A stretch of DNA of 37,160 bases from a virus: positions 1-37,160 of IMG/VR virus record IMGVR_UViG_3300017724_000018; one strand, 5' to 3'. Positions 4,759 through 35,663 of this stretch are shown here, one piece after another. A model generated the notes under the pieces. That model was not told the DNA's origin, did not search any database, and was given only the letters and a program-made list of their open reading frames with translations. The position numbers and the translations under genes are program-made. Each line of letters starts with the position of its first letter. Position 1 is the first letter of the stretch.

Positions 4759-5570
4759 GTGAAGAAGTAATGACCAATGCCGAACAGGAAACCTCAACTA
4801 CGCTGATGGGGTCTGATGACGGGATTGATAATCAAGATTGGAAATCAGCGTTACCAGAAGAACTACGAAATGATGCAACGCTAAGTAACTTTAAAGATGT
4901 TGCTAGTCTTGCTAAGACTGTAGTTCATCAACAACAGCAAATGGGCAACAGAATACCTTTGCCAAAAACTGATGAAGAACGTGCCGAACTATATACTAAG
5001 TTGGGTAGGCCAGAAACCGCTGATGGATATGAAATAGACATTGGCGAAGAACTAAAACCATATTTTAGGGATGAAAACATCCAAGCATTTAGGCAAGTAG
5101 CGCATGAAATTGGGTTAAACCCACAGCAAGTAAGCGCACTAATAGATATGCAAAAAAATTCTATCGCATCTGAACTGTCAAACAGCCCTGCACATTTAGA
5201 AGTGCAAGCACAGGAAACACAAGACGTTCTTAAACAAGAATGGGGTGTTCAGTATGATAGAGAAATACGAAGCGCAAAACGGGCTTTGCAAGTTTATGGT
5301 GATGATGAAATCATGGAACTTATGAACACTGAAGCTGGCAATAATCCCGCTGTAATTAAAATGTTTGCACGTTTGGGCAAAGAAATTACAGAAGACATGA
5401 CGCAAAATACGCAAAACAATAATCTTGCTGTATCTGCGCTTGATGCCCGTTCAGAAATTGATGCAGTTATGCAAGACCCAACGCATGCTTATTTCAATGA
5501 CCGTCATCCAGAACACAAAACGGCTGTTGAAAAAATGCGTCAATTGCATGAAAAAGTGTTTGGGGAGTAA
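4755..5570 (+). CDS. capsid assembly scaffolding protein
   Basis: This 271-residue, strongly acidic protein immediately precedes the capsid gene, where podoviral scaffolds are encoded. Visible features are an acidic disordered N-terminus, the segment RIPLPKTDEERAELYTKLGR followed by PETADGYE (common in this family), long predicted helices in the middle, and a C-terminal charged helix (HKTAVEKMRQLHEKVF) that would be the capsid-contact segment. It would guide procapsid assembly and then be released. Its start has a GGAGC ribosome site and overlaps the previous stop. Confidence 0.88.
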   Translation: MSEEVMTNAEQETSTTLMGSDDGIDNQDWKSALPEELRNDATLSNFKDVASLAKTVVHQQQQMGNRIPLPKTDEERAELYTKLGRPETADGYEIDIGEELKPYFRDENIQAFRQVAHEIGLNPQQVSALIDMQKNSIASELSNSPAHLEVQAQETQDVLKQEWGVQYDREIRSAKRALQVYGDDEIMELMNTEAGNNPAVIKMFARLGKEITEDMTQNTQNNNLAVSALDARSEIDAVMQDPTHAYFNDRHPEHKTAVEKMRQLHEKVFGE

Positions 5571-10660: not shown

Positions 10661-12657
10661 TGGCTATTACTTTACCTAGATATTCCCAAAAAAATGACAA
10701 AGTTCCTGTCATTCAGGCGGCGCGTAATACTACTCAAGCAAGCGGTGGGTTATCGGATTTAGGCAAAAGCCTAATGGTTGCTGTTGAAAGTTATGGCAAC
10801 CTGACTACCCAAGTAGATGCGGAACTAAGGCAAAGAGATTTTGAAAACACAGTTCAGCTTAACAGTATCCAAGCTGAAGGCGCGATGGCTTTAAAAATTC
10901 AGGAATATGAACAAAACGACAAATGGTCTACCGCTGGAACAGATGGCACTAATGGTTGGGAAAAAGATTTTAATAAGTTTGTAGAAAAGCAACGTGAAAC
11001 ATTTAAAAAGGCCATGAACGAACAAGAATTTGCGGCGTTTGAGCCAGCGTTACTTGCCCAAGAAATGAATGGCAGAGTTCTTGTTAGAAAACATAGGCGT
11101 GAAGCTACAATTAAACATTCGCAATATGTTATTGGCGAAGGGTTAAAAACATTTAGACAATCTGTAGAAAAAGCTGAAACTGTTGGGGGAGTTATAAATG
11201 CATGGCTTTCAGTAACAGGCGGTCAATCTGTATCCGCTCTTACAGGTAGTCAAACACAAACATACGCAAATGGCAATACTCTTACGACAAGAGCAATGCA
11301 TAGTGGTCAAACTACATCAACAGGTGTTCTTAATGCTAATTCTGTAAAAGTTGTAGGCGTAGAAACTTATAATACTATGCAAACCGAAGCAAAAGAACTG
11401 GTAAACAATAAAATCATGTTCTTGCAAGCTGGCGGGGCAAAAAAAATTCAGTCACCTGATGGTGGCATGGAAACAGATTACGCTACTATATTTAAAAATC
11501 TAAAAGACCCTGAAATAGTAATTGTAGATTTAAACGGCAAAGAAGTTACGGTTGATGACCCTATCCGAAAAACAATGATTGCTGAAATGAAAGGTTTAAT
11601 GGAAGGGCAAGTTACTAACCACAATGTTCAACAGCAAAAGAAAGGCAACAAACGATTTGAAACTTATAGTGAGCAAATTAATGGCTTGGAATTAGGCCAG
11701 ACAAAAGATGATGCTGGTAACAATTTGCCAAGTATTCTTCAAATGAAGAAAGCTATTAACGAAGACCAAGATTTAAGTGATGAGCAAAAAGATAATTTAA
11801 CTAGCGCAATTACTGCGTTGGAAAGCAATATAGCGGCGCAATTAAAAAATGGCTTAAAATCATATGAAACGCCAGAAGCAAAACAATATGAAACATTAGT
11901 CACAATATTGGCTCATGCTGGATACCTTAATACAGAAGCCGAAAACAAGGTTCTTATGCAAGGATATTCAAAAGGATTAATTAGTTCGGATAAATTAAAA
12001 GAATTAGTGAGCATAACAAAAACAAATATTGAAAAACAAACTACAATTAAAAAAGACCTCACAGATAGAGCCATTAAGATGATTACTAGAGAATTAGGTC
12101 TTAAAGGCGATATTATGGAAACTTTGCTTAAAACAAATAGAGGCGAAGTAAAAATGGATACACTTGCTGAACTATTGCGCGACCCTAGCAATCAACGTGG
12201 TTATTCCGCAATAAGCCAACTTCATTTACTTATAGCAGAAGGTGAAAAACGAGGTTTATCAGTTGAACAAATGTTAAATTCAGATGGCACAGACCCTAAT
12301 AATCTGCCTGCTAAACTTATAAAAGTTTATAAAGCAGACATGGCAGATTTAAAAGCTAACAAATTAAGATTTCAAGTAGATACCCTTGTTACAAAAAACG
12401 CCGCTGGTAAAGATGTTATAGAAGGGGGTGATGCAAGATTTAGATTTGACCAAACAGAATACTTTAATCAAATTACTAACACTGGGCGTATAGACAAACA
12501 AGTTCCTATAATGAATGACGGTGAAACTGTATCCCAATATTTAACTAGGGTAGGAAGCGTTTCATTAGGCAACAGTGCGATGCCTAAATTTATGCAAAAA
12601 GATAATATAAATGACCCAGCATTTTATAGTGTAATTATACCACAGGCTGATGAATGA
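10660..12657 (+). CDS. internal virion (ejection) core protein, gp15-like
   Basis: This 665-residue, mostly helical protein lies between the gp14-like and the giant gp16-like genes. The N-terminus has LGKSLMVAVESYGNLTTQVD, and the remainder is long charged helices without enzyme motifs, as expected for the scaffold of the trans-envelope conduit (T7 gp15). Codons overlap with the next gene by ATGA (12654-12657), so it should be made in step with its partner. Confidence 0.8.
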   Translation: MAITLPRYSQKNDKVPVIQAARNTTQASGGLSDLGKSLMVAVESYGNLTTQVDAELRQRDFENTVQLNSIQAEGAMALKIQEYEQNDKWSTAGTDGTNGWEKDFNKFVEKQRETFKKAMNEQEFAAFEPALLAQEMNGRVLVRKHRREATIKHSQYVIGEGLKTFRQSVEKAETVGGVINAWLSVTGGQSVSALTGSQTQTYANGNTLTTRAMHSGQTTSTGVLNANSVKVVGVETYNTMQTEAKELVNNKIMFLQAGGAKKIQSPDGGMETDYATIFKNLKDPEIVIVDLNGKEVTVDDPIRKTMIAEMKGLMEGQVTNHNVQQQKKGNKRFETYSEQINGLELGQTKDDAGNNLPSILQMKKAINEDQDLSDEQKDNLTSAITALESNIAAQLKNGLKSYETPEAKQYETLVTILAHAGYLNTEAENKVLMQGYSKGLISSDKLKELVSITKTNIEKQTTIKKDLTDRAIKMITRELGLKGDIMETLLKTNRGEVKMDTLAELLRDPSNQRGYSAISQLHLLIAEGEKRGLSVEQMLNSDGTDPNNLPAKLIKVYKADMADLKANKLRFQVDTLVTKNAAGKDVIEGGDARFRFDQTEYFNQITNTGRIDKQVPIMNDGETVSQYLTRVGSVSLGNSAMPKFMQKDNINDPAFYSVIIPQADE

Positions 12658-15600
12658 TAACCGCATTACAACTTAAACAAGCTGGCTTTGATGATGACAG
12701 TATTGTTGGATTTATTGAAGAACAACGCCCGTTATTGTTAAAAGCTGGTTTTTCAAATCACAAAATTAACAAAGCGTATGGTTTACAAGTTAACCATGCG
12801 GCATCTACTGATACAGGTATTCTAAATGGAAATGACGGTGACCCTCTGCATAATGGCATTCCTGTAGGGAAGCAAAGTGCTTTAACAACTCAACAAGAAG
12901 CTGTTAGTGGCAGTGCTACTACTGACACTGATGGCAGTCTTTTGCCTACTGACGAAGTTACAAAAGAAGAAGCAGAAGCTAATCTAATAACAATTGACAA
13001 AATTAATGATGATGACCGCGCAACTATTTTGCGAACTATGCAAACTTTGCAAGGCATGATTAAAGAAGAAGGCGATGTTGTTGGGCTACAAACAGATTGG
13101 TTAGCAAAACATTATCCAAATATAACCCATCAAGAAGCTAAAAAAATGAGTTCTAATGAACTTGATTTAATAGAAGCGGCTAAAACTGCGGCTAAATCAC
13201 CTTTGTATCGACCATGGAAAACTGGTGTCTATGTCCTAAACGGCAAACGATACAATAAAGAAGAATTTCAAAAGAGATTTCCTAGTGTTTTTGCACAAGA
13301 CCATGAAAAAATTGATACATCTAAAGTAGAAAAACTAGAAGTAATAAATACGATTACGACTACTGGTGAACACAGTAGAAACGTATTAACAAACATGGCA
13401 AGCCAATATAATCTGAAGCCTACTGGTATTGCAAACATTAACGAAGCGTTAAGTTTTATTACTGAATTAGAAAGTGGTGGGCGGTCTATTTACAATGACG
13501 AAGGAAACAAAACTGGTTTATTTCAATTAAGCACCGACCAAACTATTGAAGCGGCAAACGCTTTTGCAGAAATGAATTATTTTGACAATCCTGATTGGGA
13601 AGTTCCAAGTTGGGTGACGCAACTTTATGTTCACCGCGACATGACTAGGCTAATGCCAGACCAGCAACGTGCTTTAGCGTTAGCAAGAATTTTAAAAAAC
13701 GCAGGGTCAGGCAACGATATATTAAAACGTCTTGCTGACGGTGACGTTAGTGCAATTAAAGACCTTTACATAGATTTGCACAGAAATGACCAATACACAG
13801 AACGCGAAACTGGTGATGGTGGAACAATGCGTGAGCGTGTTGAAAACCCTGAACTAGATGCTCGCATTGAAGAAATAACTAAATATTTTGACACGCCAAA
13901 TTACGATTATAAAAATCCTGAAATTGCTGTTTATGCGGCAGATGGATGGATGGCAAGCACATTAGAAAGCGTTCCCGTAGTAGGTGACAAATTAGTTAGA
14001 TGGTCAGGTGGTAAAGGACACCAAAATGTTTTTACTAATGGCTACAGAATGTCAATGACAGGTAGCATTAGCGCATTTAATTCAGCCCTATTAGACGGGG
14101 AAGACCCTGCTACTGTTTATAGACGTATCTTTATGACGCAAGAACAGTCATTTGGTAAGCAAATACTACAAGATTTTACAATGCTTATGAATGATGTGCC
14201 ATGGTATGCGGCTGTTGGTGGAGCATGTTTTGCGGCTGGTGCGGCAACGGTTGGTACGGCAGGCGTAGCAGGCGCGGCTTTGCCAGTAGTTTGTGGTGGT
14301 GCGGCTATGTCATTGCCTGACGGTATTCGTGACGCATATTCAAGAGCATTGCAAAACAATGAAGTTGATAACTTAGATGATTTCTTTGAACAGTATTTTG
14401 ATATTAAAACTGCTAAAGTTATGGGTAAATCAGCGGCAGTTGGTTCTGTTACGGTTGGAACAGGATTAGCTGTTAGGAAAGTTACAGAAAGCACAATTGC
14501 TAGATTAGGCGCAGAAACAGTAGCAATGACTACAATGGCTTCTGTATTAGAAGGCCAAGTGCCAACATTAAAAGATTTTGCACATAGCGCAATTTTGATT
14601 GGTGGTGTTCATACCACATTTAAATTGGCTGGAAAATCAAAGGGCGTATATGACATTTTGCATGTCTTGTATAACAAATACGCTATTCACCCAGCAGATG
14701 TAAATAAACTGGCTGAAATGAACCCAACTTTTAGGGAGCAAATTATAAATGGTGAAGTGCCAACATTAATTACAGATACCGCCAAAAATATACAAGAACA
14801 GATGCATAAAAAAGCTGGCATTGAACCTATTTTAGAGCCTGAATTTAAAATAAATCAGCCTGTAGAAACATCTGTAGCTGGCATGGAATTTGGCACAGTT
14901 ATTGGTCACAAAGTAATTGGCGATAAAACTATTTTAGAAGTTAGGGATGCGTCAGGAAATGTTAAGAACGTACAAGAAAGCCAAGTTCGCCCTATTGCTA
15001 AAGACCCTATAGTAGTAAAGGTAGCAGAAAACGGTAAGATTGAAGTAACCCGTCCTATTGAACACCCCATTGCAGAAGCGCAACGAACTAAAAAAGCCTC
15101 AATAGATTGGGAAGTTTACGAAACCCGTAAAAGACCAGAAGCAAAACCTGATGAAGCTGTTACAAAAACAGAAAAAATAGCTGATGTTGTGCCATTAAGA
15201 ATAAAATCTGGTGGTAAAGACAATGCAGTTTCTAATGGCGTTGTGTCAGTAGTTGGAAAATATTACCCAGCTATAGCCAAGAAATTAAACAGCATGACAA
15301 AAAATGCTTCTAATAAATTAATTGCGGCGGCATCAAAAACAGACGTTCTTATTAAAGCAAATGGCGGCAAGCCATTTAAAGGAACTAGCGTTTCTATTAA
15401 AATAATAGGAGCAATCAAAGCTGGTGGAGAATTTGGTGCTAAGACAGACCAAGTAGTTATAAAAATTGGCAAAGATATAATTAACGTAAGTAAAGATGCA
15501 TACGAAGCTATGCGTAATTACGAAAATGAAGGTGGCAGGCAAGCTAGTCCTAAGATTGTAGGACAAGGCGATACGGTTTTATTTATCAATCCAAAAACAA

Positions 15601-18600
15601 ATAAAATCATGGCTACTTTAAAAGGCGAAAAAACAACAGGAAAAGCTAGAGAGCAAGCTGAAGGTTTTGATAGGTCTTCAGGTGCGTACTATGATAGGCA
15701 AAATGCGTCTAGGGGGGATGCCCCGTGGCAAATGCCTAAAGAACGCTATCATGGCGAAAAACGCGCAGTTCTGCCTGAAGGTGACAATCCTTTTTTCCAA
15801 TTATTTAATGCCGCAAAAGGCGTTGATATGATGGATTTAGTTGCATTAGTTAGAGGCCATTTAAAAAACGCGCCTGCAATGGAAGGTATGCCAGCAAGAA
15901 ACAGAGGATATTTTCGCAGTGGTGGCGGCAGAAACCCTAAGATTGGTATTAACAGAGCGTTAGCAAAAGACCCTGAAGGTTTCATAATGACTATGGCACA
16001 TGAAATAGGCCATATGCTCGACTACATTGCTAAAGATGGCAATACCATGAAACGTGGAAACATCTTAGGTTCATTAGCCAGTATGAAAGGCTACATGAAT
16101 AAATGGATTGATGGCAAAAATGACGGTGCAAAGTCTTTTAGTCAAAAAGAAATAAATGCTTTTAGGAAAGAAGCAGAGATTGAAGCGGCTAAGAATGAGC
16201 CTAAAATAGACGAAAGCATTAATAAGATTGCTGATGAAACTGGCGCAAAGATTACGCCACAAACAATCTTAGACATATTTCAAAAGACTGACGCAAGAAA
16301 TTTTATACCAGAAGAATTTTACAATGCATTTGCTAAATTAAGTAACGCATTAAAAAAACAAGTGGTTAGGGATGCCGCTAAAGGAATGTTAAGCGGTGAC
16401 CTAAAAAGGTTAGCTGACAAAATTAATGCAAAACCCGCAGAAGGAACAAAAGCAGAGCCTTTAAGTTCAGATGCTACAAAACGTGCAGAACAAATTTTTG
16501 CAGAGAAATTCCAAAAGGCTTTAAAGGAAAGAGGTCTTGTAGATAAGGAATGGGTAATTGCAGAATTAAAAGCTATGTCACAACTATGGAAGCCTTTTGA
16601 ACGAGTAGAAGGTAGCAAATATACACAGTATCGTGACAGCCCTAGAGAATTGATGGCTGACTTTATAATGGCATGGTTACTGCGTCCAGATTGGGTTAAG
16701 CAACATGCGCCTGTAACATGGGAAACTTGGGCATATCATATAGCTAAAAAGCCTAAATTAATAGAACAATGGGCAGAAATACAAAATCAGCTTATTGCTG
16801 GTAATGATGCACGATTTTCGGCAGGCGTTAAATCTATTTTAGATATGTTTGACAGGGGAGAGGCCCAAAAGACAAAAGCCCTTGAAGGCGAAAAAGCTAC
16901 GTTAAGAGGTAGGAAAAACCTACAAGTTGAGCAAACTGGATACGAAATTATAGACCAATTTAATTGGATATATAGAAGATTACAGGGCAAAGATACTGGA
17001 ACAATTCGACCAAGGTGGCATAGCGAACAAGCTAAAGAATTAAACATTACATTAGAAAACTTTCGATACCGTCATGCTAACCTGAAGCATTACAATGACC
17101 AAATTACAAGGAAGGTAGTTCGTAAACTAGAAGGTATGGATTTAAATTATAAACATTTAGCTTTGTTTATGTATTTGAGAAACATATCTGAAAGTAGCCA
17201 GCGTGACGGTGTAGCAAACCCGTTAGGTGTTATGAAGCTGACACCTGAACTTAAAGCAATATTGCAAGAAAACGGCCAGCGTTCCGCGCAAGATATGCTG
17301 ACATTTTTTGAAACCAAACACCCACAATTGCGTGAAATAGCAAATGAATTTAGCGCAATCAGACAAAGGTTGGTTATACCTGTTCTTAAAGCAAGCAAGA
17401 TGTTTGATGCTGAAACAATGAGGAAAATTGAAGAAAACCCAGAGTATGTAACATTTAGCGTTGTAGACAATATGGTTCAGCGTATTGAAAAATTTGGCGA
17501 AACTGGCGTGGCAACTACAAAAGTTGCTAAGACAAAAGGTACGCTAGGCGAAATTGATAATGTTTTTATGGCAACTATAGAAAAAGACATGCGTTTGCTT
17601 GGGGAGGCAAAGAAAAATAAAACTATTATTGAAATGGTTGCATGGATAAAAACCAACAAATCTTGGATGGAAACATTTAATGGTTTGCGTGACAAAGCAG
17701 GCAATACAATTAAAGAAGATGTAATTGTTTTCCCTAAATATAGAGGCAATAATTACGGATATGACAGCCCGAAAGCTGGCATGAAAGCACTTAACTACAT
17801 GGAGAATGGAAAACAGAAAGTTGTTCATTTGCCAGAAAATTTAGTTGATGCATTTTTCCATAATCCTTTAGGAAATTACATGATGATAAGGATATTGGAA
17901 GCCAGCGCATTACCATTTAAGAAAATGTTTACAGAATATAACCCTGCTTTTTGGGGTGTAAATATGTTTAGAGACACAATTAGGTCTGTAAGAAATTTAG
18001 AAGGCGCAAGGATGATTGACCCATTAGGGAAAAATATCAAAACAGATTTACTGAAGTTTGATAGGTCATTTCTTAAATATATGTTTAAAGCGTTTTCGCC
18101 AGCGGCTAAATCAATCTTTGGTGACGGAACACAACTTACAAGGTTTATGGAAGAAAATGGTTTTCTGATTTCTATGGAAGACGGTTACCGTGGACAATCT
18201 GGTGCTATGGCTAGATTGCGTAATATGAACCAAGATGATTATGCAATTGAGCGTTTGTTAAGAAAACATAACCAGCAAGGCAATTTTGTTGAGCAAGTTT
18301 ACAATAAAAGTTTTGGCATGTTATTCAATGCTCTTGGTAATACCGCCCGTGTAGCAGAGCGTGTACCTAAAATTGCGGGTGCTATGTATTTGCGCGACCA
18401 AGTTGCGGCAGGCAATTTAAAGATGTCTGTTGGCGAACAAATGTTGCGTGTTCAAACAGAAGTTGGGTCACCAAGTTTCTTGCGTACAGGTAGAGTTCAT
18501 GCGCTAACAAACAACATATTAATGTATAGTAATGCCGCTAACCAAGGCTGGCGTGGGGATTTAGTGCGTCTTAAAGAAGCACCTAAAAGCGTTATAGGTA

Positions 18601-19571
18601 AATATATTGCATATACTGTTGCACCTAAAATGATACAGAAAGCAATGGAATTAGGCGCAGGGGGCGCAGGCATAGCGGCTTTATATGCTGGCATAAGCGA
18701 ATGGGATAAAACAAATTATATTGCAATTCCACTTGGCATAATGATGCCAGATGGTTCTTTTGAAAATGTTGCAAGCATGGATGAAGATGACATTAAACAA
18801 GGGCAAGTTGTTTACTTTAGAATACCGCAAGATGAAACTGCGCGAGTAATTAATGGAATGTTTCATAAAGGGTTTGATGCAATACTAAAAGAAGACCCTT
18901 CAAAGACAGGATTTCAAAAATATTTTGATTTTGCCAGCGGTCAAGGCTACAGCCTGAACCCTATATTTAAGTTTATTCCTGATATTCTTACATCAATTGG
19001 CGGTGACGCTCCATTTGATAGTTTTAAAAATCGCAGTTCAATTGATAGAACTACGCAATTAGCAAATGATGACAGGCGTGTTATGGAAATTCAAAAATGG
19101 TTTTGGAACAGCTATGGCGGTCAATCTATACATAAGTTCAAAGGACGAAATGAAGTTGAGATTGCACACGAACTGCAAGAACTTTTAGAAGTTCCTATAG
19201 TCGGTAGAATGATAGCTAGATTTATTAAAATTGGTGATAACGTAGCTGTTCCCGCAATGCGTGAAGCTGTCAAAACTATGGATGTTGAGGATGCTAGAAC
19301 ACATTTAGATTTCGTAGATGGCATGAACATAATAATTAACAACAGCGTGGCAGGCGAAACAGAAAAAAGAGAATTGTCTGAAGCGCACATAATAGCTATT
19401 GCTAAAAAACAAGACGTTATTAAGGACAGCCCAATTTTACAAACGCATTTGTTACAGGCTGGCGGGGCAAGCCAGCAATTGCAATATTTCTTAGAAATTG
19501 ATAGTGAGAAAAAGAGAATAGTAGCATTGAAGGCTTGGTTAGATACGTTGAATAAATTTGAGAAAAACTAA
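12654..19571 (+). CDS. giant ejection protein (gp16-like) with transglycosylase-like and zincin-like motifs
   Basis: This 2305-residue protein holds several modules. Residues 4-45 contain a doubled AGF motif (LKQAGFDDDSIVGFIEEQRP). Residues about 265-330 look like a lysozyme-type transglycosylase: ITELESGG with E273 as likely catalytic Glu, then GLFQLS (288-293). Residues 517-553 form a long small-residue hydrophobic stretch that could cross the inner membrane. Residues 1114-1123 carry MAHEIGHMLD, a zincin HExxH site (H1116, E1117, H1120), with ELMADF (1332-1337) as a possible third-ligand motif. From about 1757 a helical region (EYNPAFWGVNMFRDT) resembles the LPD38-type region of large polyvalent phage proteins. 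Likely injected with DNA to cut peptidoglycan, and perhaps to cleave a protein. Boundaries are approximate. Confidence 0.85.
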   Translation: MITALQLKQAGFDDDSIVGFIEEQRPLLLKAGFSNHKINKAYGLQVNHAASTDTGILNGNDGDPLHNGIPVGKQSALTTQQEAVSGSATTDTDGSLLPTDEVTKEEAEANLITIDKINDDDRATILRTMQTLQGMIKEEGDVVGLQTDWLAKHYPNITHQEAKKMSSNELDLIEAAKTAAKSPLYRPWKTGVYVLNGKRYNKEEFQKRFPSVFAQDHEKIDTSKVEKLEVINTITTTGEHSRNVLTNMASQYNLKPTGIANINEALSFITELESGGRSIYNDEGNKTGLFQLSTDQTIEAANAFAEMNYFDNPDWEVPSWVTQLYVHRDMTRLMPDQQRALALARILKNAGSGNDILKRLADGDVSAIKDLYIDLHRNDQYTERETGDGGTMRERVENPELDARIEEITKYFDTPNYDYKNPEIAVYAADGWMASTLESVPVVGDKLVRWSGGKGHQNVFTNGYRMSMTGSISAFNSALLDGEDPATVYRRIFMTQEQSFGKQILQDFTMLMNDVPWYAAVGGACFAAGAATVGTAGVAGAALPVVCGGAAMSLPDGIRDAYSRALQNNEVDNLDDFFEQYFDIKTAKVMGKSAAVGSVTVGTGLAVRKVTESTIARLGAETVAMTTMASVLEGQVPTLKDFAHSAILIGGVHTTFKLAGKSKGVYDILHVLYNKYAIHPADVNKLAEMNPTFREQIINGEVPTLITDTAKNIQEQMHKKAGIEPILEPEFKINQPVETSVAGMEFGTVIGHKVIGDKTILEVRDASGNVKNVQESQVRPIAKDPIVVKVAENGKIEVTRPIEHPIAEAQRTKKASIDWEVYETRKRPEAKPDEAVTKTEKIADVVPLRIKSGGKDNAVSNGVVSVVGKYYPAIAKKLNSMTKNASNKLIAAASKTDVLIKANGGKPFKGTSVSIKIIGAIKAGGEFGAKTDQVVIKIGKDIINVSKDAYEAMRNYENEGGRQASPKIVGQGDTVLFINPKTNKIMATLKGEKTTGKAREQAEGFDRSSGAYYDRQNASRGDAPWQMPKERYHGEKRAVLPEGDNPFFQLFNAAKGVDMMDLVALVRGHLKNAPAMEGMPARNRGYFRSGGGRNPKIGINRALAKDPEGFIMTMAHEIGHMLDYIAKDGNTMKRGNILGSLASMKGYMNKWIDGKNDGAKSFSQKEINAFRKEAEIEAAKNEPKIDESINKIADETGAKITPQTILDIFQKTDARNFIPEEFYNAFAKLSNALKKQVVRDAAKGMLSGDLKRLADKINAKPAEGTKAEPLSSDATKRAEQIFAEKFQKALKERGLVDKEWVIAELKAMSQLWKPFERVEGSKYTQYRDSPRELMADFIMAWLLRPDWVKQHAPVTWETWAYHIAKKPKLIEQWAEIQNQLIAGNDARFSAGVKSILDMFDRGEAQKTKALEGEKATLRGRKNLQVEQTGYEIIDQFNWIYRRLQGKDTGTIRPRWHSEQAKELNITLENFRYRHANLKHYNDQITRKVVRKLEGMDLNYKHLALFMYLRNISESSQRDGVANPLGVMKLTPELKAILQENGQRSAQDMLTFFETKHPQLREIANEFSAIRQRLVIPVLKASKMFDAETMRKIEENPEYVTFSVVDNMVQRIEKFGETGVATTKVAKTKGTLGEIDNVFMATIEKDMRLLGEAKKNKTIIEMVAWIKTNKSWMETFNGLRDKAGNTIKEDVIVFPKYRGNNYGYDSPKAGMKALNYMENGKQKVVHLPENLVDAFFHNPLGNYMMIRILEASALPFKKMFTEYNPAFWGVNMFRDTIRSVRNLEGARMIDPLGKNIKTDLLKFDRSFLKYMFKAFSPAAKSIFGDGTQLTRFMEENGFLISMEDGYRGQSGAMARLRNMNQDDYAIERLLRKHNQQGNFVEQVYNKSFGMLFNALGNTARVAERVPKIAGAMYLRDQVAAGNLKMSVGEQMLRVQTEVGSPSFLRTGRVHALTNNILMYSNAANQGWRGDLVRLKEAPKSVIGKYIAYTVAPKMIQKAMELGAGGAGIAALYAGISEWDKTNYIAIPLGIMMPDGSFENVASMDEDDIKQGQVVYFRIPQDETARVINGMFHKGFDAILKEDPSKTGFQKYFDFASGQGYSLNPIFKFIPDILTSIGGDAPFDSFKNRSSIDRTTQLANDDRRVMEIQKWFWNSYGGQSIHKFKGRNEVEIAHELQELLEVPIVGRMIARFIKIGDNVAVPAMREAVKTMDVEDARTHLDFVDGMNIIINNSVAGETEKRELSEAHIIAIAKKQDVIKDSPILQTHLLQAGGASQQLQYFLEIDSEKKRIVALKAWLDTLNKFEKN

Positions 19572-20737: not shown

Positions 20738-23700
20738 ATGAGTAAAAAGCTATTACACCATTATACGTTTGACGCTTCAGCGAAAACGATTGTGCTAGAC
20801 GGTATCTACGGGCAAGAACGCTTGTTGATGATTAGCAACATTGAAGACAACGTAATTATCTATCTCTTTAATCAAGCGGCATTTGGTTTAACTAGCTATT
20901 CTATTAACACTGACACTGAAAAAACTACTCTTGTATTGGCGCATGACACTACAGCTATGGCTGATACTGACAAGCTACAAATTTTTGTAGAGGAAGACAG
21001 TACAGCATTTTCCCCTGCCGAAACATACGTTGACCCTGTTTCTAAAATTCGTATGTCAACGCCAGAAAACCTTATTGACACTGATTTTGAATATGGGTTG
21101 CAGTCTACTAAATGGGAAACGCTAGAATTAGTTAACAACATTCCTACATTTTATAGCCGTAACGGTGACACATCTATGTCGCTTACGTCCATTAACAAGA
21201 CAAACAGTAGTGAAATTATTAGCGTAACAACTACAACAGAACACGGGTTGTCAGTTGGTAACCCTATTATTGTGCAAGGCACAGATAGCCCATCTGCTAA
21301 CGGTGCGTTTATTGTTACAGCAATACCAAGCACAACAACATTTCAATACAAATCTAAGAATGTGCAAAGTTCTACTGGTTCTATCCTAGACACTTATACA
21401 CAAATATTTATTGGTAGCGTTTACCAAGGAACAGAATTTCAATTAGCGGCACTTAACTCTGTTGTAACAGATGCGGCAAGCCCTTCAGTCTTGACGGTAA
21501 CAACTAAAAGCCCAACTAATTTTAGTGTCGGCACTAGTTTCTTTTTAAGCAACAGCGTTGGCAGTAAGAACGTATCTTTTAATGCGGCTAACATTCAGCC
21601 TTCAAACACAAGAACTAAACGTGAAACTGTAACAAATCTTGCGGCAACTAATTCAGGTGATGGAAGCAAATGGGCAATTGGTAATGCTCAACCGTTTAAC
21701 TGGACACCAATCAAAGGAATGTTTTTTGTTAGTGGTGGCGCGGCAGACGCGACAGCTACTTTCAATACAGTAACAGAAGAAATTGAATTTGCAGAAGACC
21801 ATGTATTTGGTGATGGTGAAGCTGTTATGTATATTCTTGGTAATGGTAACACATTGCCAACAGGTGTTTCGCAACGTAGGTATCATGTAAGAACTACAGC
21901 AAATCCTAAACACATTTACCTTACAACAGGTGGGCCAACTTCTATTGCCCGTGTTAATTTAGGAAGCCAAGGTGCTAATGGCGGCATGATGCGTGATTGT
22001 TTAGCGGCTGGTGTGGTAGCTAGTTCTGTTAATAATAGTACAGAACTGTTTACGTTTGACCAGAACTACATAACATACCCTGCTAATACACCTTATATGC
22101 CTATGTATACTACGTTAGCTGGTTTAAACACCATGAACACTGGTAGTACATTAATTAATTATTTTGAAGGTGATAGCACACCAAGAGTTTATTATTTAAA
22201 TGCTGTTTCTGGCAGTAGTAACACAGCACATTTTTCTACAACAGTAGGTGGCAGTAACGTAAATACTACTAGCACTAATGTTAGTGGTATCTTTGTGCCA
22301 ATGATGCGTCAAGTTGATGGTGACCGAAACAGTTTATATCTACCTAAAGGTGGATGGGTTGCTGGTGATAAAGTGCAAATTGACAGTACATCTATTATGG
22401 GTGGCATGACTGACAATGGCATGTACCAGCTTGTAGCGTCTGGTTCTGCGTTTCCTAATAGATTTAGATTTGAAGCACTTGGCGGGGGATTAAACCCTAA
22501 CAATACTAACGAAAGCAATTTCAGTAACTATGGCGGCGTTGGCACAACCATTCATAACGTCATGGAATTTAATCACAGCAAGAATGTTACGGCTACTGGC
22601 GAAACTACTGGCTGGCCTATTGGCGCAATCAACCCTAAGAACTGGTTGCCTGATGAAGCGTTCTTCTTTGTGCAGGGCGGCAGTGGAAACATTAACGTAA
22701 ACACTGGCACAGAAACAATTACGTTTGGTTCACCCCACGGGTTTGTAGATAACAAACCATATGTCTATTTTACTGGACAAGGTAACACTGTTATTAGCGG
22801 TCTTACTGATGCCCGTTGGTATTATGTACGGGTAGTATCAGCAACAGAAATTTATTTAACAACTACTGAAGGTAGCACAACTAAAGTAAATCTAAGTAAC
22901 AACGGTGCAAATGCAGGCGTAGTGCGGTCTTGTTTCGTAAGAGCATATCGCGGCGTATCATCAGATGGTGCGGCTGAAACTATTACAATGGCAGAAGCAA
23001 TCCCAAATCTTACCGCTGGCGGCACACAGCAATTGATGGCTTGTTACACTACCTTTAATAACTTTACAGTCTTTAATGGTTCTAATGACTTAATGTCTTA
23101 TAACAGTGGTGGTGGTCAGGTAGTGTATGCCAAGACTGTTTCATCTGATGGTCTTACATTGTCATTTACTAACACACCTGACGGTTCGACAAGGGCATTA
23201 AATACAGGCGCAGTTAATGCGGCAGTTCTTATCAAAGTATCAAATGACCCAAGGGCTAACAGTATATGGTATGCTAATCACGGTTTAGAAACTGGTGATG
23301 TAGTGCGTCACTATAACTCAACTACTGCTATTAGCGGCATGACTTCTGGCGATTACTACAAAATAACAAAAGTAAACGATAACCGTATTTCATTCCAAGT
23401 TCATAGTAACGGAACTACGCCAGTTAACTTTGCTAACTATGGCAGTTCAGCGGCAACGGCTTATACATATTTCATAGGCAAAACAGTTGTTGCTTCAGGT
23501 GATTATATTCACGCAGTAGGTCATGGGTTAAATAATAAAGACAGTGTGTTCTACAATCAAAATAGTGGGGGCAAAATATTCCCATTAGTAGATGGCACAA
23601 CATATTATGTTCAGAACGCTAACGCAGATAAGTTTCAAATAAGCACAACATTTGATGGAACAGATGGTGACGCAATAACCGTTGACCAGAACACTTCTAA

Positions 23701-26700
23701 GTTTACAAGTTTTTACAACATTACTTACAATGGTCATGGATTTGTAACTGGCGATAGAGTTCAGTACATTTCATCTACACCAGTAGCACCATTGCAAAGC
23801 GGTGCTTATTATTACATCAACAGAGGCAATGCTAATTACTTTAGTTTGCATATGAATTATGATGGCGCAGACCTTAATGATGTAAGAACAAGAATAGAGT
23901 TTGCTTACCCTTATACTGGAACAGGTACGTTCCAAAAAACTACGGCTGTTGATTTAGAAAACAAAGGAACAGGCACACAAATATTTAATGCTACCGCAGT
24001 AGGTGCTTCAGATGGTGTGTATAAAATTGCCACAGTTCCAACAACAACAACATTTACACTAAATGCTGACACACAATTACCTGACAGAGATGTATCTTTT
24101 ACACCTGAAAGTTCAGTTTGGATTGAAGAAAACGCAATTAGAATACCAGACCATTATTTTGTAACTGGTCAGGCTGTTGTATATACAACGGCGGGAACAG
24201 TAGTTACTGGATTAACCAGCGGCACAACTTATTATATAGTAAGAGTAAGCCGTGATTGGATTAGGTTAGCCGCAACATATGATGATGCTGTAATTAATAA
24301 TGTAACGATTGCATTAACTGGCATTGGTGTAGGCACACAAAAATTATCTACTGACAGTATTACAGGTGAAGTGATAGGTGGTGGAACAGTTAGCGTAGAC
24401 GCTTCGTCTACTAAAGTTACTGGCGTTGATACGAACTTTACATCATTCTTTAATACTGGCGATACAATATCAATATACGCAAATCCAACTACAGCGGAAG
24501 CTAGTGTATCTAGTATTAACACTGGCACATCAGTATTTACAACTAGCCCTGCACATGGATTATCTACTGGTGACATGGTTGTAATGACTGGTTCTGTAGT
24601 ACCTACAGGAACAACAGTTAACAATATTTATTATGTTCGTGTAGCTAGTACGACAACCCTGTCATTGCACCCATCAAATGCTGATGCTGTAGCAGATACA
24701 AATGATGTTTCAATTACTGACCAAGGTGACGGTGTTAAACTTATAAGCTATGCAGACATTGGCGTAACTTATTCAAACACTGTAAAGGCTGTAACAGGAC
24801 AAGGTTCACTTGAATTAGAAACAGCTTCGCCAGCTACAGTTACAGGCGCAAACTTTACAATAGGAACTTCCCTGCTTATGAGGGCAGACGGGTTTGCATT
24901 GCACCGTCCTTATGATGGCGGCGTAGAACTAATACCTTCTAAAAATCCTGACAGTAAAATGATTAGGCAGACTAGACGTTACTTTAGGTATCAATCTGGT
25001 AAGGGCATCCAAGTTTCGTTTGCAGTTAACTTTAGCCCGTCTACACAAATAGACACTTATACCGCTTCAGGAACTACAGCTACAATCAAGACACGTTATG
25101 CACATAGATTGGCAACGGGTCTTAGTATCACTCTCAATGGTGCTACTACAAGTGACGCTACTAATTATTGGAACGGTACATTTACTGTAGCTAGTATTGT
25201 AGATGAATACACATTTACTGTAACGCTTGCAGGCACACCATCAGCAGGCTCAACAGGCCCATCAGGAATACCAGAATTTTATGTAGTTAGTTGGTCAAAC
25301 AGCGCGTTGAAATGTGGTTTGTTTGATGACCAGAATGGATTGTATTTTGAATATAACGGTTCTGCATTAAGTGTGTGCCGTAGAAATTCAACAACGCAAA
25401 TTAGTGGTGACGGTAGCGTTACATTTAAGAGTTCTGATATTACAGGAACTAACACAAAATTTGCAAAACAGTTAAGCGTTGGTGACAGCATTGTTATCAA
25501 GGGGCAAACATATAAAGTAACAAACATTGGTAGCGATACATCAATGTCTGTCTTGCCTAGCTATAGAGGAACGTCTAACAGCCGTGTAGTTATTACCAAA
25601 GTAATAGACACTAAAGTTAGCCAAGCTAATTGGAACTTAGACCCTTGTGATGGCACTGGCAAAAGCGGTTTCTATTTAAAAACAAATCGTATCCAAATGG
25701 CATACATGGATTACTCATGGTACGGGGCTGGTAAAGTAAGGTTTGGGTTTAAAGACCAGCGGGGCAAAGTAATTTATGTGCATGAATTTGTTCACAACAA
25801 CCATTTCAATGAAGCATACATGCGGTCAGGAAACGTGCCTGCTAGATATGAAATTGAAAACACTGGCACACCTACATATGTACCAGCCCTAGCCCATTGG
25901 GGTACGTCTGTTATTATGGATGGTGGCTTTGACAGTGATAGTGCGTACCAGTTTACTGCATCTTCACAAGACCTTCAGGTTACAGGTAACGCAACAGTTA
26001 CAGTTGCGGCTAACGCAGAAGAAAACGACAGCTACTATTACTTTTATAATAACCGTTGGCATAACATTGGCAGAGCATTGCAAATTGCAACGCCTAGTTA
26101 TCTATACAATTCTGTGCCAGCTAACAAAAATATTACAGGTAGCAATCTTAACAGTTATACCTACACACGAAACCCTAGTAGTTACTTCCAATTGCCTAAT
26201 CAGCCATACCAAGTTAACTTGCTGACCCGTAGACAGTATTCAAATAATAGTTCTACAGAAGAATTTAGAAACTTGATGCTGATTAACCAAGCACCTACTG
26301 GTGAAACAAATACAACTTCTAACTTTACGGTTACAGTTGCTACTACAGGTGTACCAGTTGTGTATGACATTCCGCTTATTAGCGTAAGGCTTGCACCATC
26401 TGTAGACACAAACACTATTGGTTATTTAGGTGAGCGTGAAATCATCAACCGTATGCAATTGATTTTGAAAACTGTAGGTATCTTGTCTACACACAATGCT
26501 AAAATTACATTGCGACTAAACGGTTTGATTACAAATACAGATTGGAACGCTGTTACTAACCCATCACTAAGCCAACTTATATATCACACTAACCAAGATA
26601 GTATTTCAGGTGGTATTGATATATTTAACTTTAGAGCGCAGGGCGGTAGCGGAACAAGTGGACGTTCAGCGGTTGTTACAACGCAAGAGTTAGGTGAGAT

Positions 26701-26863
26701 TACTACATTAGGTAACTCTATCTTAGGCGGTAACAACGTCTACCCAGATGGCCCTGATGTTCTAACCATTGTAGGCCAACTTGTAGAAGACCCATCTACT
26801 GTAAGCACTACTAACCCGTTCAACATTACTGGACGAATATCATGGACTGAAAGCCAAGCGTAA
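20738..26863 (+). CDS. giant repeat-containing tail or adhesin protein (about ten E1-FCCH-like units)
   Basis: This 2041-residue beta-rich protein is rich in Thr, Asn, Ser and Gly. I count about nine or ten imperfect units of roughly 70-110 residues between residues 155 and 1500, with the signature HG-x-x-x-GD-x-V, then GLTSGTTYY-type turns and FxL strands (examples NHGLETGDVVRHY, GHGFVTGDRVQYI, AHGLSTGDMVVMT). The C-terminal 250 residues contain IRLAPSVDTNTIGYLGERE-like text (read here as VRLAPSVDTNTIGYLGERE), which I recall from large structural proteins of marine myoviruses. AGGAGG lies 9 bases before the start. It is probably a baseplate-like or receptor-binding component docked to the fibre. 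Confidence 0.82.
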   Translation: MSKKLLHHYTFDASAKTIVLDGIYGQERLLMISNIEDNVIIYLFNQAAFGLTSYSINTDTEKTTLVLAHDTTAMADTDKLQIFVEEDSTAFSPAETYVDPVSKIRMSTPENLIDTDFEYGLQSTKWETLELVNNIPTFYSRNGDTSMSLTSINKTNSSEIISVTTTTEHGLSVGNPIIVQGTDSPSANGAFIVTAIPSTTTFQYKSKNVQSSTGSILDTYTQIFIGSVYQGTEFQLAALNSVVTDAASPSVLTVTTKSPTNFSVGTSFFLSNSVGSKNVSFNAANIQPSNTRTKRETVTNLAATNSGDGSKWAIGNAQPFNWTPIKGMFFVSGGAADATATFNTVTEEIEFAEDHVFGDGEAVMYILGNGNTLPTGVSQRRYHVRTTANPKHIYLTTGGPTSIARVNLGSQGANGGMMRDCLAAGVVASSVNNSTELFTFDQNYITYPANTPYMPMYTTLAGLNTMNTGSTLINYFEGDSTPRVYYLNAVSGSSNTAHFSTTVGGSNVNTTSTNVSGIFVPMMRQVDGDRNSLYLPKGGWVAGDKVQIDSTSIMGGMTDNGMYQLVASGSAFPNRFRFEALGGGLNPNNTNESNFSNYGGVGTTIHNVMEFNHSKNVTATGETTGWPIGAINPKNWLPDEAFFFVQGGSGNINVNTGTETITFGSPHGFVDNKPYVYFTGQGNTVISGLTDARWYYVRVVSATEIYLTTTEGSTTKVNLSNNGANAGVVRSCFVRAYRGVSSDGAAETITMAEAIPNLTAGGTQQLMACYTTFNNFTVFNGSNDLMSYNSGGGQVVYAKTVSSDGLTLSFTNTPDGSTRALNTGAVNAAVLIKVSNDPRANSIWYANHGLETGDVVRHYNSTTAISGMTSGDYYKITKVNDNRISFQVHSNGTTPVNFANYGSSAATAYTYFIGKTVVASGDYIHAVGHGLNNKDSVFYNQNSGGKIFPLVDGTTYYVQNANADKFQISTTFDGTDGDAITVDQNTSKFTSFYNITYNGHGFVTGDRVQYISSTPVAPLQSGAYYYINRGNANYFSLHMNYDGADLNDVRTRIEFAYPYTGTGTFQKTTAVDLENKGTGTQIFNATAVGASDGVYKIATVPTTTTFTLNADTQLPDRDVSFTPESSVWIEENAIRIPDHYFVTGQAVVYTTAGTVVTGLTSGTTYYIVRVSRDWIRLAATYDDAVINNVTIALTGIGVGTQKLSTDSITGEVIGGGTVSVDASSTKVTGVDTNFTSFFNTGDTISIYANPTTAEASVSSINTGTSVFTTSPAHGLSTGDMVVMTGSVVPTGTTVNNIYYVRVASTTTLSLHPSNADAVADTNDVSITDQGDGVKLISYADIGVTYSNTVKAVTGQGSLELETASPATVTGANFTIGTSLLMRADGFALHRPYDGGVELIPSKNPDSKMIRQTRRYFRYQSGKGIQVSFAVNFSPSTQIDTYTASGTTATIKTRYAHRLATGLSITLNGATTSDATNYWNGTFTVASIVDEYTFTVTLAGTPSAGSTGPSGIPEFYVVSWSNSALKCGLFDDQNGLYFEYNGSALSVCRRNSTTQISGDGSVTFKSSDITGTNTKFAKQLSVGDSIVIKGQTYKVTNIGSDTSMSVLPSYRGTSNSRVVITKVIDTKVSQANWNLDPCDGTGKSGFYLKTNRIQMAYMDYSWYGAGKVRFGFKDQRGKVIYVHEFVHNNHFNEAYMRSGNVPARYEIENTGTPTYVPALAHWGTSVIMDGGFDSDSAYQFTASSQDLQVTGNATVTVAANAEENDSYYYFYNNRWHNIGRALQIATPSYLYNSVPANKNITGSNLNSYTYTRNPSSYFQLPNQPYQVNLLTRRQYSNNSSTEEFRNLMLINQAPTGETNTTSNFTVTVATTGVPVVYDIPLISVRLAPSVDTNTIGYLGEREIINRMQLILKTVGILSTHNAKITLRLNGLITNTDWNAVTNPSLSQLIYHTNQDSISGGIDIFNFRAQGGSGTSGRSAVVTTQELGEITTLGNSILGGNNVYPDGPDVLTIVGQLVEDPSTVSTTNPFNITGRISWTESQA

Positions 26864-31472: not shown

Positions 31473-31530
31473 GCCACCATCGAAAGAGGACTAGGTTAAA
31501 AGTTGTGTGTCTTTTCTCCCTATGTTGAAC

Positions 31531-31565
31531 TAGGGGTGGTTTCGATTTGCCACCCCTATTTTTTT
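31531..31565 (+). terminator. Rho-independent terminator after the repressor gene
   Basis: Nine perfect pairs, TAGGGGTGG (31531-31539) with CCACCCCTA (31550-31558), a 10-nt loop, then seven T residues (31559-31565). An ATCGAAA at 31480-31486 could instead pair with TTTCGAT in the loop (31540-31546), hinting at an alternative structure. The T run ends exactly where the tRNA-like gene begins. Confidence 0.88.
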
Positions 31566-31652
31566 GCTAATGTATTTTAATGGTAGAATATTTGTAGGTT
31601 TTTTTCCGAACACCTACAAAAGATGTGGGTTCAAATCCCGCCATTAGCACCA
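31566..31652 (+). tRNA. tRNA-Gly-like gene with an expanded anticodon arm
   Basis: The acceptor stem is perfect: GCTAATG (31566-31572) with CATTAGC (31642-31648), then A and encoded CCA (31650-31652). The T arm is GTGGG-TTCAAAT-CCCGC (31625-31641). The D arm (TTTTAATGGTAGAAT, 31575-31589) is the typical tRNA-Gly D arm apart from a mismatch at the first pair. The anticodon arm is abnormal: a 9-bp stem (31591-31599 with 31612-31620) and a 12-nt loop instead of 5 bp and 7 nt, about 13 nt extra. TCC (31605-31607) in the loop would read glycine GGA. It may be a functional odd tRNA, a decoy or a decayed gene. It abuts the stop of the convergent gene at 31653. Confidence 0.7.
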
Positions 31653-32069
31653 TCACTTTTTCCAATAGCCGTACACCATTTTGTCAGTGCTATCCCAAGT
31701 GTCAAAAACATTGCCATCAACAACCGCGACAAAGTGCCTAGCTTGCCTAGCTATAATGACACCATCACGCTTAAAATCACGGGGTCTTGCTTTGCGGCCT
31801 TCATACTTTGGCGCACTATGCCATTGGTAACCTAATTTGACTAACAGTTTATGAAATTCATGTTTCATAATGCCATCACGCGCAGACTTCTTACCGCCTG
31901 CATCTTTGTTAGCTTGTGCTACTAATTTATATGCTTCCACATAGGCTTCGCCCATCTGTACTAAATATGGCATGCTTTCAGCTATTGCCAAAGCCCTTGC
32001 CGCACAATCCCCTGTCTTACCTAAAAAGCCAGCTTCTTTTCTGCCACCGTCAGTATAATGCCAATCCAT
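31653..32069 (-). CDS. papain-like cysteine-protease-fold phage protein
   Basis: In this 138-residue protein, TGDCAARALAIA (19-30) places Cys22 at the start of a helix, and ARQARHFVAVVDGNVFDTWD (107-126) puts His112 on a strand with following acids, the Cys-His order of the NlpC/papain-like fold. I recall this family (GDCxxRA plus RHxVAVxDG) from many phages and plasmids, always as a hypothetical protein. It could be a protease, transglutaminase-like enzyme or amidase. AAAGGAG lies 6 bases before the ATG. Its likely promoter overlaps operator C. It is transcribed alone between the tRNA-like gene and the origin region. Confidence 0.7.
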   Translation of the reverse strand: MDWHYTDGGRKEAGFLGKTGDCAARALAIAESMPYLVQMGEAYVEAYKLVAQANKDAGGKKSARDGIMKHEFHKLLVKLGYQWHSAPKYEGRKARPRDFKRDGVIIARQARHFVAVVDGNVFDTWDSTDKMVYGYWKK

Positions 32070-35025: not shown

Positions 35026-35365
35026 TAATGATGTACTAGAAAAGAAAATGCATGAACTGCGCGAGATAGGCGAAAAGCATGCAAAAGCCAGAGGCAACGT
35101 ATCACTGTTAGAGCATGGCAGAAAGATACTATTGTCCACCATAATGAAAGAAGTAATGGTTAAGGGCAAAGAATTTTCTACCATAGCCGCCCAAGAGCGT
35201 GAGGCTAGGGCAGATGATAGATACCAAACGCATATAAGTGCGCTTGCCATTGCGATAGAAGAAGAAACAAAATGGGCATGGGAAAAAAAGATAGTTGATA
35301 TGAACTTTGAAAGTTGGAAAACTAAAATGATTAATCAAACTGTTGAGAGAAAAAAATATGCCTAA
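35018..35365 (+). CDS. coiled-coil phage protein of unknown function
   Basis: This 115-residue, fully helical, highly charged protein (Lys/Glu/Arg-rich) has AAQEREARADDRYQTHISAL in the middle and MNFESWKTKM near the end, a pattern I recall from small proteins encoded beside phage recombination genes. No catalytic motif. It overlaps both the helicase (8 bases) and the Ref-like nuclease, so it is expressed within the replication module and probably assists it. Confidence 0.7.
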   Translation: MTDNDVLEKKMHELREIGEKHAKARGNVSLLEHGRKILLSTIMKEVMVKGKEFSTIAAQEREARADDRYQTHISALAIAIEEETKWAWEKKIVDMNFESWKTKMINQTVERKKYA

Positions 35366-35663
35366 AGCAAAGACCGCCGCAGAGAAAAAGCATATGTCTA
35401 AAGTTGCTGAACTTGGATGCATAATATGCTATCGTATGGGCTATGAAGGTTCACCAGCGGAGTTACATCATATTAAAGAGCATACGGGCATGGGCAAAAG
35501 GTCTAGTCACTTTGAAGTTATCCCGTTGTGTCCTATGCATCACCGTTCTAGCGATGCCGCTTACCATGTGTCACCCGCATCATTTACCGCAAAATGGGGA
35601 ACGCAACGCGACTTACTCAACTTTACATTGGCACTTTTAAGCGAAAAAAATGGGGGCAATTAA
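35358..35663 (+). CDS. Ref-like HNH-type nuclease
   Basis: The protein has 101 residues from the ATG at 35358, 5 codons inside a TTG-started frame; GAGAG lies upstream. A zinc site CIIC (21-24) is followed by ELHHIKEHTGMGKRSSHFEV (35-54) and PLCPMHHRSS (56-65), the beta-beta-alpha-metal layout of the P1 Ref family, a RecA-dependent nuclease that cuts at displacement loops. The order CxxC, HHI, GMGKR, HF, PLC, HH fits that family well. It closes the rightward replication module. A generic HNH endonuclease is the alternative. Confidence 0.78.
   Translation: MPKAKTAAEKKHMSKVAELGCIICYRMGYEGSPAELHHIKEHTGMGKRSSHFEVIPLCPMHHRSSDAAYHVSPASFTAKWGTQRDLLNFTLALLSEKNGGN

What the first reader, a model, noticed from the sequence alone, without database searches (positions are those of the whole stretch)
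31566..31652. tRNA-Gly-like gene with a 9-bp anticodon stem and 12-nt loop
Acceptor stem, T arm, D loop and encoded CCA are intact, and the D arm is that of tRNA-Gly. Only the anticodon arm deviates, with about 13 extra nt in a long, well-paired stem. Random decay would not be expected to leave nine perfect pairs. Possible roles (inference): a decoy for host anticodon nucleases, a tRNA reading unusually, or a non-translational RNA mimicking a tRNA. The TCC in the loop may no longer be positioned for decoding.
Basis: partly seen in the sequence, partly recalled or inferred. Interest (0 to 1): 0.7.

Follow-up and report, generated by a model that had tools for sequence, protein, structure and literature searches.

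The report
Phage tRNA-like RNA, lengthened anticodon hairpin
A marine phage carries one tRNA-shaped RNA gene, intact at both ends, whose codon-reading arm is nearly twice the normal stem length; a second related phage lineage has a diverged version of the same oddity at the same spot, so it is probably a kept, non-decoding tRNA mimic rather than a broken tRNA.

Summary
Window 31566-31652 matches the Rfam tRNA family (53.7 bits), with a complete acceptor stem, T arm and encoded CCA, and an anticodon arm of 9 pairs and a 12-nt loop. An independent contig has the identical element, so an assembly error is unlikely. The main new result: two contigs of a related lineage (L005, L006) carry a diverged tRNA-like RNA at the same place, directly after the U-run of the terminator of a Cro-like gene, and its anticodon arm is also extended (8 pairs plus an inner hairpin). 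Between the lineages nine stem pairs changed on both sides and still pair, five of them in the anticodon stem and two beyond the canonical five. No relative checked has a normal-armed tRNA; most, including the closest (L004), have none. Such an arm should not place an anticodon correctly, so I favour a non-decoding RNA built on a tRNA scaffold, probably a decoy for a host tRNA-binding factor. The scaffold reading is well supported; the decoy function is inference. Assignment to tRNA-Gly is not supported. New variant of a known kind.

The parts
31566..31652 (+). tRNA-like RNA gene, 87 nt, with encoded CCA
   Evidence: RF00005 53.7 bits; fold z -4.0
31566..31572 (+). acceptor stem 5' strand GCUAAUG (pairs with 31642-31648 CAUUAGC, 7/7)
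   Evidence: sequence
31575..31589 (+). D arm UUUU-AAUGGUA-GAAU (U8, A9, A14, G18 and G19 kept; U10-U25 mismatch)
   Evidence: sequence
31591..31620 (+). extended anticodon arm: 9-bp stem UUUGUAGGU/ACCUACAAA and 12-nt loop UUUUUUCCGAAC (31600-31611)
31625..31641 (+). T arm GUGGG-UUCAAAU-CCCGC
   Evidence: sequence
31649..31652 (+). discriminator A73 and encoded CCA
   Evidence: sequence
31531..31565 (+). intrinsic-terminator-like hairpin with a 7-U run that ends directly at G1 of the tRNA-like gene; same arrangement in L005/L006
31230..31472 (+). Cro/YdaS-like DNA-binding protein gene upstream (context)
   Evidence: Pfam P22_Cro 3.9e-11
31653..32069 (-). convergent gene of unknown function that ends directly after the CCA; not present between the tRNA-like gene and the DUF1376 gene in L005 (context)
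   Evidence: phrog_3754

Best explanation
The element is a tRNA-like RNA that is made and matured like a tRNA but does not decode. Shown: an intact acceptor stem, T arm, D-loop and T-loop signature bases and CCA, with an anticodon arm replaced by an 8-9-bp (or longer) hairpin, kept in two phage lineages with compensatory changes. Inferred from established tRNA biology: transcription that passes the upstream terminator is cut by RNase P at G1 and trimmed at the 3' side, giving a stable RNA of about 87 nt with a CCA end; an anticodon four pairs too far from the body cannot sit in the ribosomal decoding site. Inferred, least certain: the displayed hairpin occupies a host factor that recognises tRNA by the elbow or acceptor plus a hairpin (an anticodon nuclease or another tRNA-targeting defence, a modifying enzyme, a synthetase), so the RNA works as a decoy that spares functional tRNAs during infection. 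It would work like the artificial 'tRNA scaffold' used to express foreign hairpins in E. coli (PMC3753655).
For: Rfam match and fold. Identical copy in an independent contig whose flank carries a substitution. Diverged copy with an extended arm at the same locus in L005 and L006. Nine stem pairs changed on both sides and still paired: acceptor 3 of 7, anticodon stem 5 of 8 (pairs 7 and 8 lie beyond the canonical five), T stem 1 of 5; the only non-pair in any stem is U10-U25 of the D stem in the window. No tRNA elsewhere in these records and no normal-armed tRNA in 22 related records, which speaks against a set of decoding tRNAs. Gly GGA is 15% of Gly codons, Arg CGG 6% and CGA 8% of Arg codons: no sign that the phage leans on those codons. 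No complementarity of the loop to the phage's own transcripts beyond shuffled controls, apart from its own antisense.
Against: Only two lineages, so the covariation is a two-way comparison. The four inner pairs alone are not improbable by chance once five outer pairs exist. The closest relative, L004, lacks the gene, so it is dispensable. Expression is undemonstrated and a terminator-like hairpin stands directly upstream. No target of the proposed decoy was identified.
Confidence: 0.42

Rival explanations
1. A phage tRNA that still decodes, with an anticodon loop at the tip of an unusually long stem (UUCCGAA, Arg CCG, in the window; UUUCGAA, Arg UCG, in L005), altered so that a host anticodon nuclease cannot cut it.
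For: Both lineages keep a U-U-anticodon-A-A-like heptamer near the hairpin tip. Phage tRNAs with anticodon-loop changes predicted to resist host nucleases are known (PMC10264068); phage tRNAs counter retron Eco7 (PMC11555353).
Against: A stem of 8-9 bp would put the anticodon far out of register. The natural functional tRNAs with long anticodon stems that the review describes have 6 bp (tRNA-Pyl, mt-tRNA-Ser; PMC7609411). The codons concerned are minor in the phage.
Confidence: 0.15
2. A decaying or pseudo-tRNA: a tRNA acquired by the phage whose anticodon arm was disrupted by an insertion, now drifting.
For: Absent from the closest relative and from most of the clade; standard ARAGORN does not call it; the inner four pairs could be chance.
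Against: Compensatory changes in the acceptor, anticodon and T stems between lineages with almost no broken pairs; two lineages both with extended arms; CCA kept in both.
Confidence: 0.2
3. A cis-acting processing or stabilising element: the tRNA-like fold is a recognition site for RNase P and 3' processing that trims the upstream Cro transcript or the end of the convergent transcript.
For: It sits directly after the terminator U-run in both lineages and abuts a convergent gene in the window.
Against: Does not explain an extended arm or an encoded CCA; a terminator already defines the upstream 3' end; the convergent gene is absent from that position in L005.
Confidence: 0.12
4. A tRNA with a small intron in the anticodon arm that is spliced out.
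Against: The two calls give different, mutually inconsistent anticodons. The insert is far too small for a group I intron, and the bulge-helix-bulge splicing of archaea is not known in bacteria (established knowledge); no bulge-helix-bulge motif in the window arm.
Confidence: 0.03

Closest known systems
Phage-encoded tRNAs that counter tRNA-targeting defences (PMC10264068; PMC11555353)
   Same: Phage gene with a cloverleaf and full acceptor and T arms
   Different: Those are decoding tRNAs with a canonical arm length and point changes in the loop; here the stem itself is nearly doubled
Artificial tRNA scaffold for recombinant RNA (PMC3753655)
   Same: Acceptor stem, T arm and D arm kept, anticodon stem-loop replaced by a hairpin insert
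   Different: Engineered; here natural and in a phage
[quoted passage not shown]
   Same: Lengthened anticodon stem
   Different: 6 bp in tRNA-Pyl and mt-tRNA-Ser; their other features (small D loop, 3-nt variable loop, or long variable and acceptor arms) are absent here
Pelagibacter phage EXVC032P Baldr (OQ414636)
   Same: Closest isolate; has the Cro-like gene and the neighbouring replication genes
   Different: No tRNA-like gene at all

Membership tests
tRNA (Rfam RF00005) | cloverleaf with acceptor, D and T arms scoring above the curated cut-off | tested here: met
   53.7 bits against 29; L005 50.7, L006 49.4
tRNA (Rfam RF00005) | anticodon arm of 5 bp and 7 nt that presents a triplet | tested here: not met
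   9 bp and 12 nt; 8 bp plus inner hairpin in L005
tRNA (Rfam RF00005) | aminoacylation and decoding | not testable with these tools
   needs acid gels and ribosome profiling
tRNA-Gly | anticodon NCC in a canonical loop | tested here: inconclusive
   UCC is present, but CCG with A37 and A38 fits equally; the relative has UCG
tRNA-Gly | bacterial discriminator U73 | tested here: not met
   A73 in the window and in L005 (sequence); the U73 rule is established knowledge
defence-evading phage tRNA | resistance to, or sequestration of, a host tRNA nuclease | not testable with these tools
   host and nuclease unknown
intron-containing tRNA | group I intron or bulge-helix-bulge motif at the anticodon | tested here: not met
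   the Rfam scan of the whole window reports only the tRNA; 9 uninterrupted pairs; intron calls inconsistent between lineages
tRNA-Pyl-type long anticodon stem | 6-bp stem, small D loop, 3-nt variable loop | tested here: not met
   9-bp stem, 7-nt D loop with GG, 4-nt variable region
tmRNA | tRNA-like domain with an mRNA-like tag | tested here: not met
   ARAGORN finds no tmRNA; only the tRNA family reported by Rfam

The most novel reading that the evidence does not exclude
Phages use the tRNA body as a natural scaffold that displays non-anticodon hairpins: a recurrent class of non-decoding tRNA mimics. The pelagiphage pair would be members with CCA, and unrelated long-armed tRNA-like RNAs would be others, such as L114 (9 bp and a 12-nt loop with UCCG in the same register as the window), L101 (10 bp) and L203.
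Probability: 0.25. Interest if true: 0.75.

Novelty: new variant of a known kind. Interest (0 to 1): 0.52.

Why it matters
Phage tRNAs are increasingly seen as part of the contest with tRNA-cutting defences, but the known ones are decoding tRNAs. A kept tRNA mimic that cannot decode would separate 'replacing' from 'decoying' host tRNAs and could be tested directly, because the RNA is short and can be expressed in laboratory strains. It would also be a natural counterpart of the engineered tRNA scaffold.

Tried and rejected
Assembly error: rejected, identical in an independent contig. Normal-armed relatives: none in 22 related records, nor in the related loci scanned by ARAGORN, a custom scan and in part by Rfam. 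Antisense pairing of the loop to the phage's own transcripts: not above shuffled controls. Intron readings: inconsistent. Broad pattern scans for long-armed tRNAs in viral contigs and genomes gave many ordinary tRNAs with long variable arms and chance hits, and a few real long-armed tRNA-like RNAs; their relation to this one is unproven, because the patterns themselves demanded extra length and, in two of the scans, a TTCC. Phage records by DNA similarity: only the isolate Baldr matches the region, and it lacks the tRNA. Literature searches found no report of phage tRNAs with 8-9-bp anticodon stems, within an open-access library only. No integrase, RNA ligase or reverse transcriptase was seen among the window ORFs scanned; the two largest ORFs (12654-19571 and 20738-26863) were not scanned.

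Full report
What was checked. The window is a 37,160-base virus record with a podovirus-like gene order; its nearest isolate is the Pelagibacter phage Baldr (portal protein 77% identical over 90%). Rfam finds a single RNA in it, a tRNA at 31566-31649 with 53.7 bits. Reading the sequence gives acceptor GCUAAUG/CAUUAGC, D arm UUUU-AAUGGUA-GAAU, anticodon arm UUUGUAGGU-UUUUUUCCGAAC-ACCUACAAA, T arm GUGGG-UUCAAAU-CCCGC and ACCA. The cloverleaf is the minimum-energy fold (z -4.0). ARAGORN calls nothing unless introns are allowed.

Is it an error or chance? A second contig from another data set (L001) carries the identical element with a substitution in the flank. Nine contiguous closing pairs are reached in 58 of 100,000 shuffles of the arm, but the four pairs beyond the canonical five alone are reached in about 15%, so the stem length in one sequence is not enough by itself.

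Relatives. Searching with the upstream Cro-like protein found 52 loci, with the convergent gene 17 and with the downstream DUF1376-like protein 80. Only two further contigs carry a tRNA at this place, L005 and L006: GGUGUUG-UA-GUUC-AACGGUUA-GAAC-A-CUGUUACA-GCCUUUCGAAUGAGGUUUGG-UGUAACAG-GUAU-GCGAG-UUCAAAU-CUUGC-CAACACC-ACCA, again with a long anticodon arm, 8 pairs capped by an inner hairpin. In both lineages the gene starts directly after the U-run of the terminator of the Cro-like gene. Compared stem by stem, three acceptor pairs, five anticodon-stem pairs and one T-stem pair have changed on both sides and still pair; two of these (pairs 7 and 8) lie in the added part. Either the gene was inherited and both stems were maintained, or long-armed tRNA-like genes arrived twice at the same site; both readings make simple decay unlikely. 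The closest relative, L004, has the terminator and then the next gene, with no tRNA; Baldr has none. Across 22 related records the only tRNAs are these long-armed ones.

What it probably does. An anticodon hairpin four pairs too long cannot be expected to reach the codon (established knowledge of the ribosomal A site; inference here). The phage has no other tRNA and the codons that the loop might read are minor ones. The anatomy, a tRNA body with a foreign hairpin in place of the anticodon arm, is that of the engineered tRNA scaffold, which gives stable processed RNAs in E. coli (PMC3753655). I therefore favour a stable non-decoding RNA, most likely a decoy for a host tRNA-binding factor such as an anticodon nuclease. 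The first part rests on tool results; the decoy step is inference without a named target.

Known or new. Phage tRNAs that evade or counter tRNA-targeting defences are known (PMC10264068, PMC11555353), and functional tRNAs with 6-bp anticodon stems are known (PMC7609411). I found no report of 8-9-bp anticodon stems in phage tRNAs, within an open-access library only.

Wider pattern. Pattern scans turned up other tRNA-like RNAs with long arms in unrelated phages and genomes, among them L114, with 9 pairs and a 12-nt loop whose UCCG lies in the same register. Several lack CCA and lie 7-60 nt before a reading frame, unlike the pelagiphage pair. They were selected by patterns that required extra length, so they show that such RNAs exist, not how common they are or that they are related.

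Noticed in passing
L114:641-728, L203:2494-2580, L193:12119-12212, L289:1673-1762, L286:6526-6609, L101:4380-4466 and 5300-5385, L130:2029-2110, L158:12247-12328: tRNA-like RNAs without encoded CCA and with altered or long anticodon arms lie 7-52 nt upstream of reading frames in unrelated phages and MAG contigs; possibly leader elements, or simply compact genomes.
   Followed up: partly
L193:12119-12212 and L289:1673-1762: Two long-armed tRNA-like RNAs, one in a viral contig and one in a Prolixibacteraceae MAG, share the arm motif GGAGUGUUUUCCC and the 3' end CCCGGCUCAA.
   Followed up: no
L073, L079, L086, L105, L112, L133, L161 and others: A recurrent phage tRNA type with a UAU-like anticodon loop (CUUAUAC) and a long variable arm containing GCCAGAUUAGC or CUAGAUUGG; long variable arms are normally confined to Leu, Ser, Tyr and Sec.
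   Followed up: no
window 31473-31530: The stretch between the Cro-like stop codon and the terminator shows matching blocks in L004 and L005 (GGCUAAAAAUUGURUGU ... UUUCUCCC); perhaps a further RNA or regulatory element.
   Followed up: no
window 35343-35663: Ref-like RecA-dependent nuclease gene near the replication genes.
   Followed up: no
L057:87-210: Strong match to the Rfam sRNA family Betaproteobacteria-1 (RF02932, 88.8 bits) in a viral contig.
   Followed up: no
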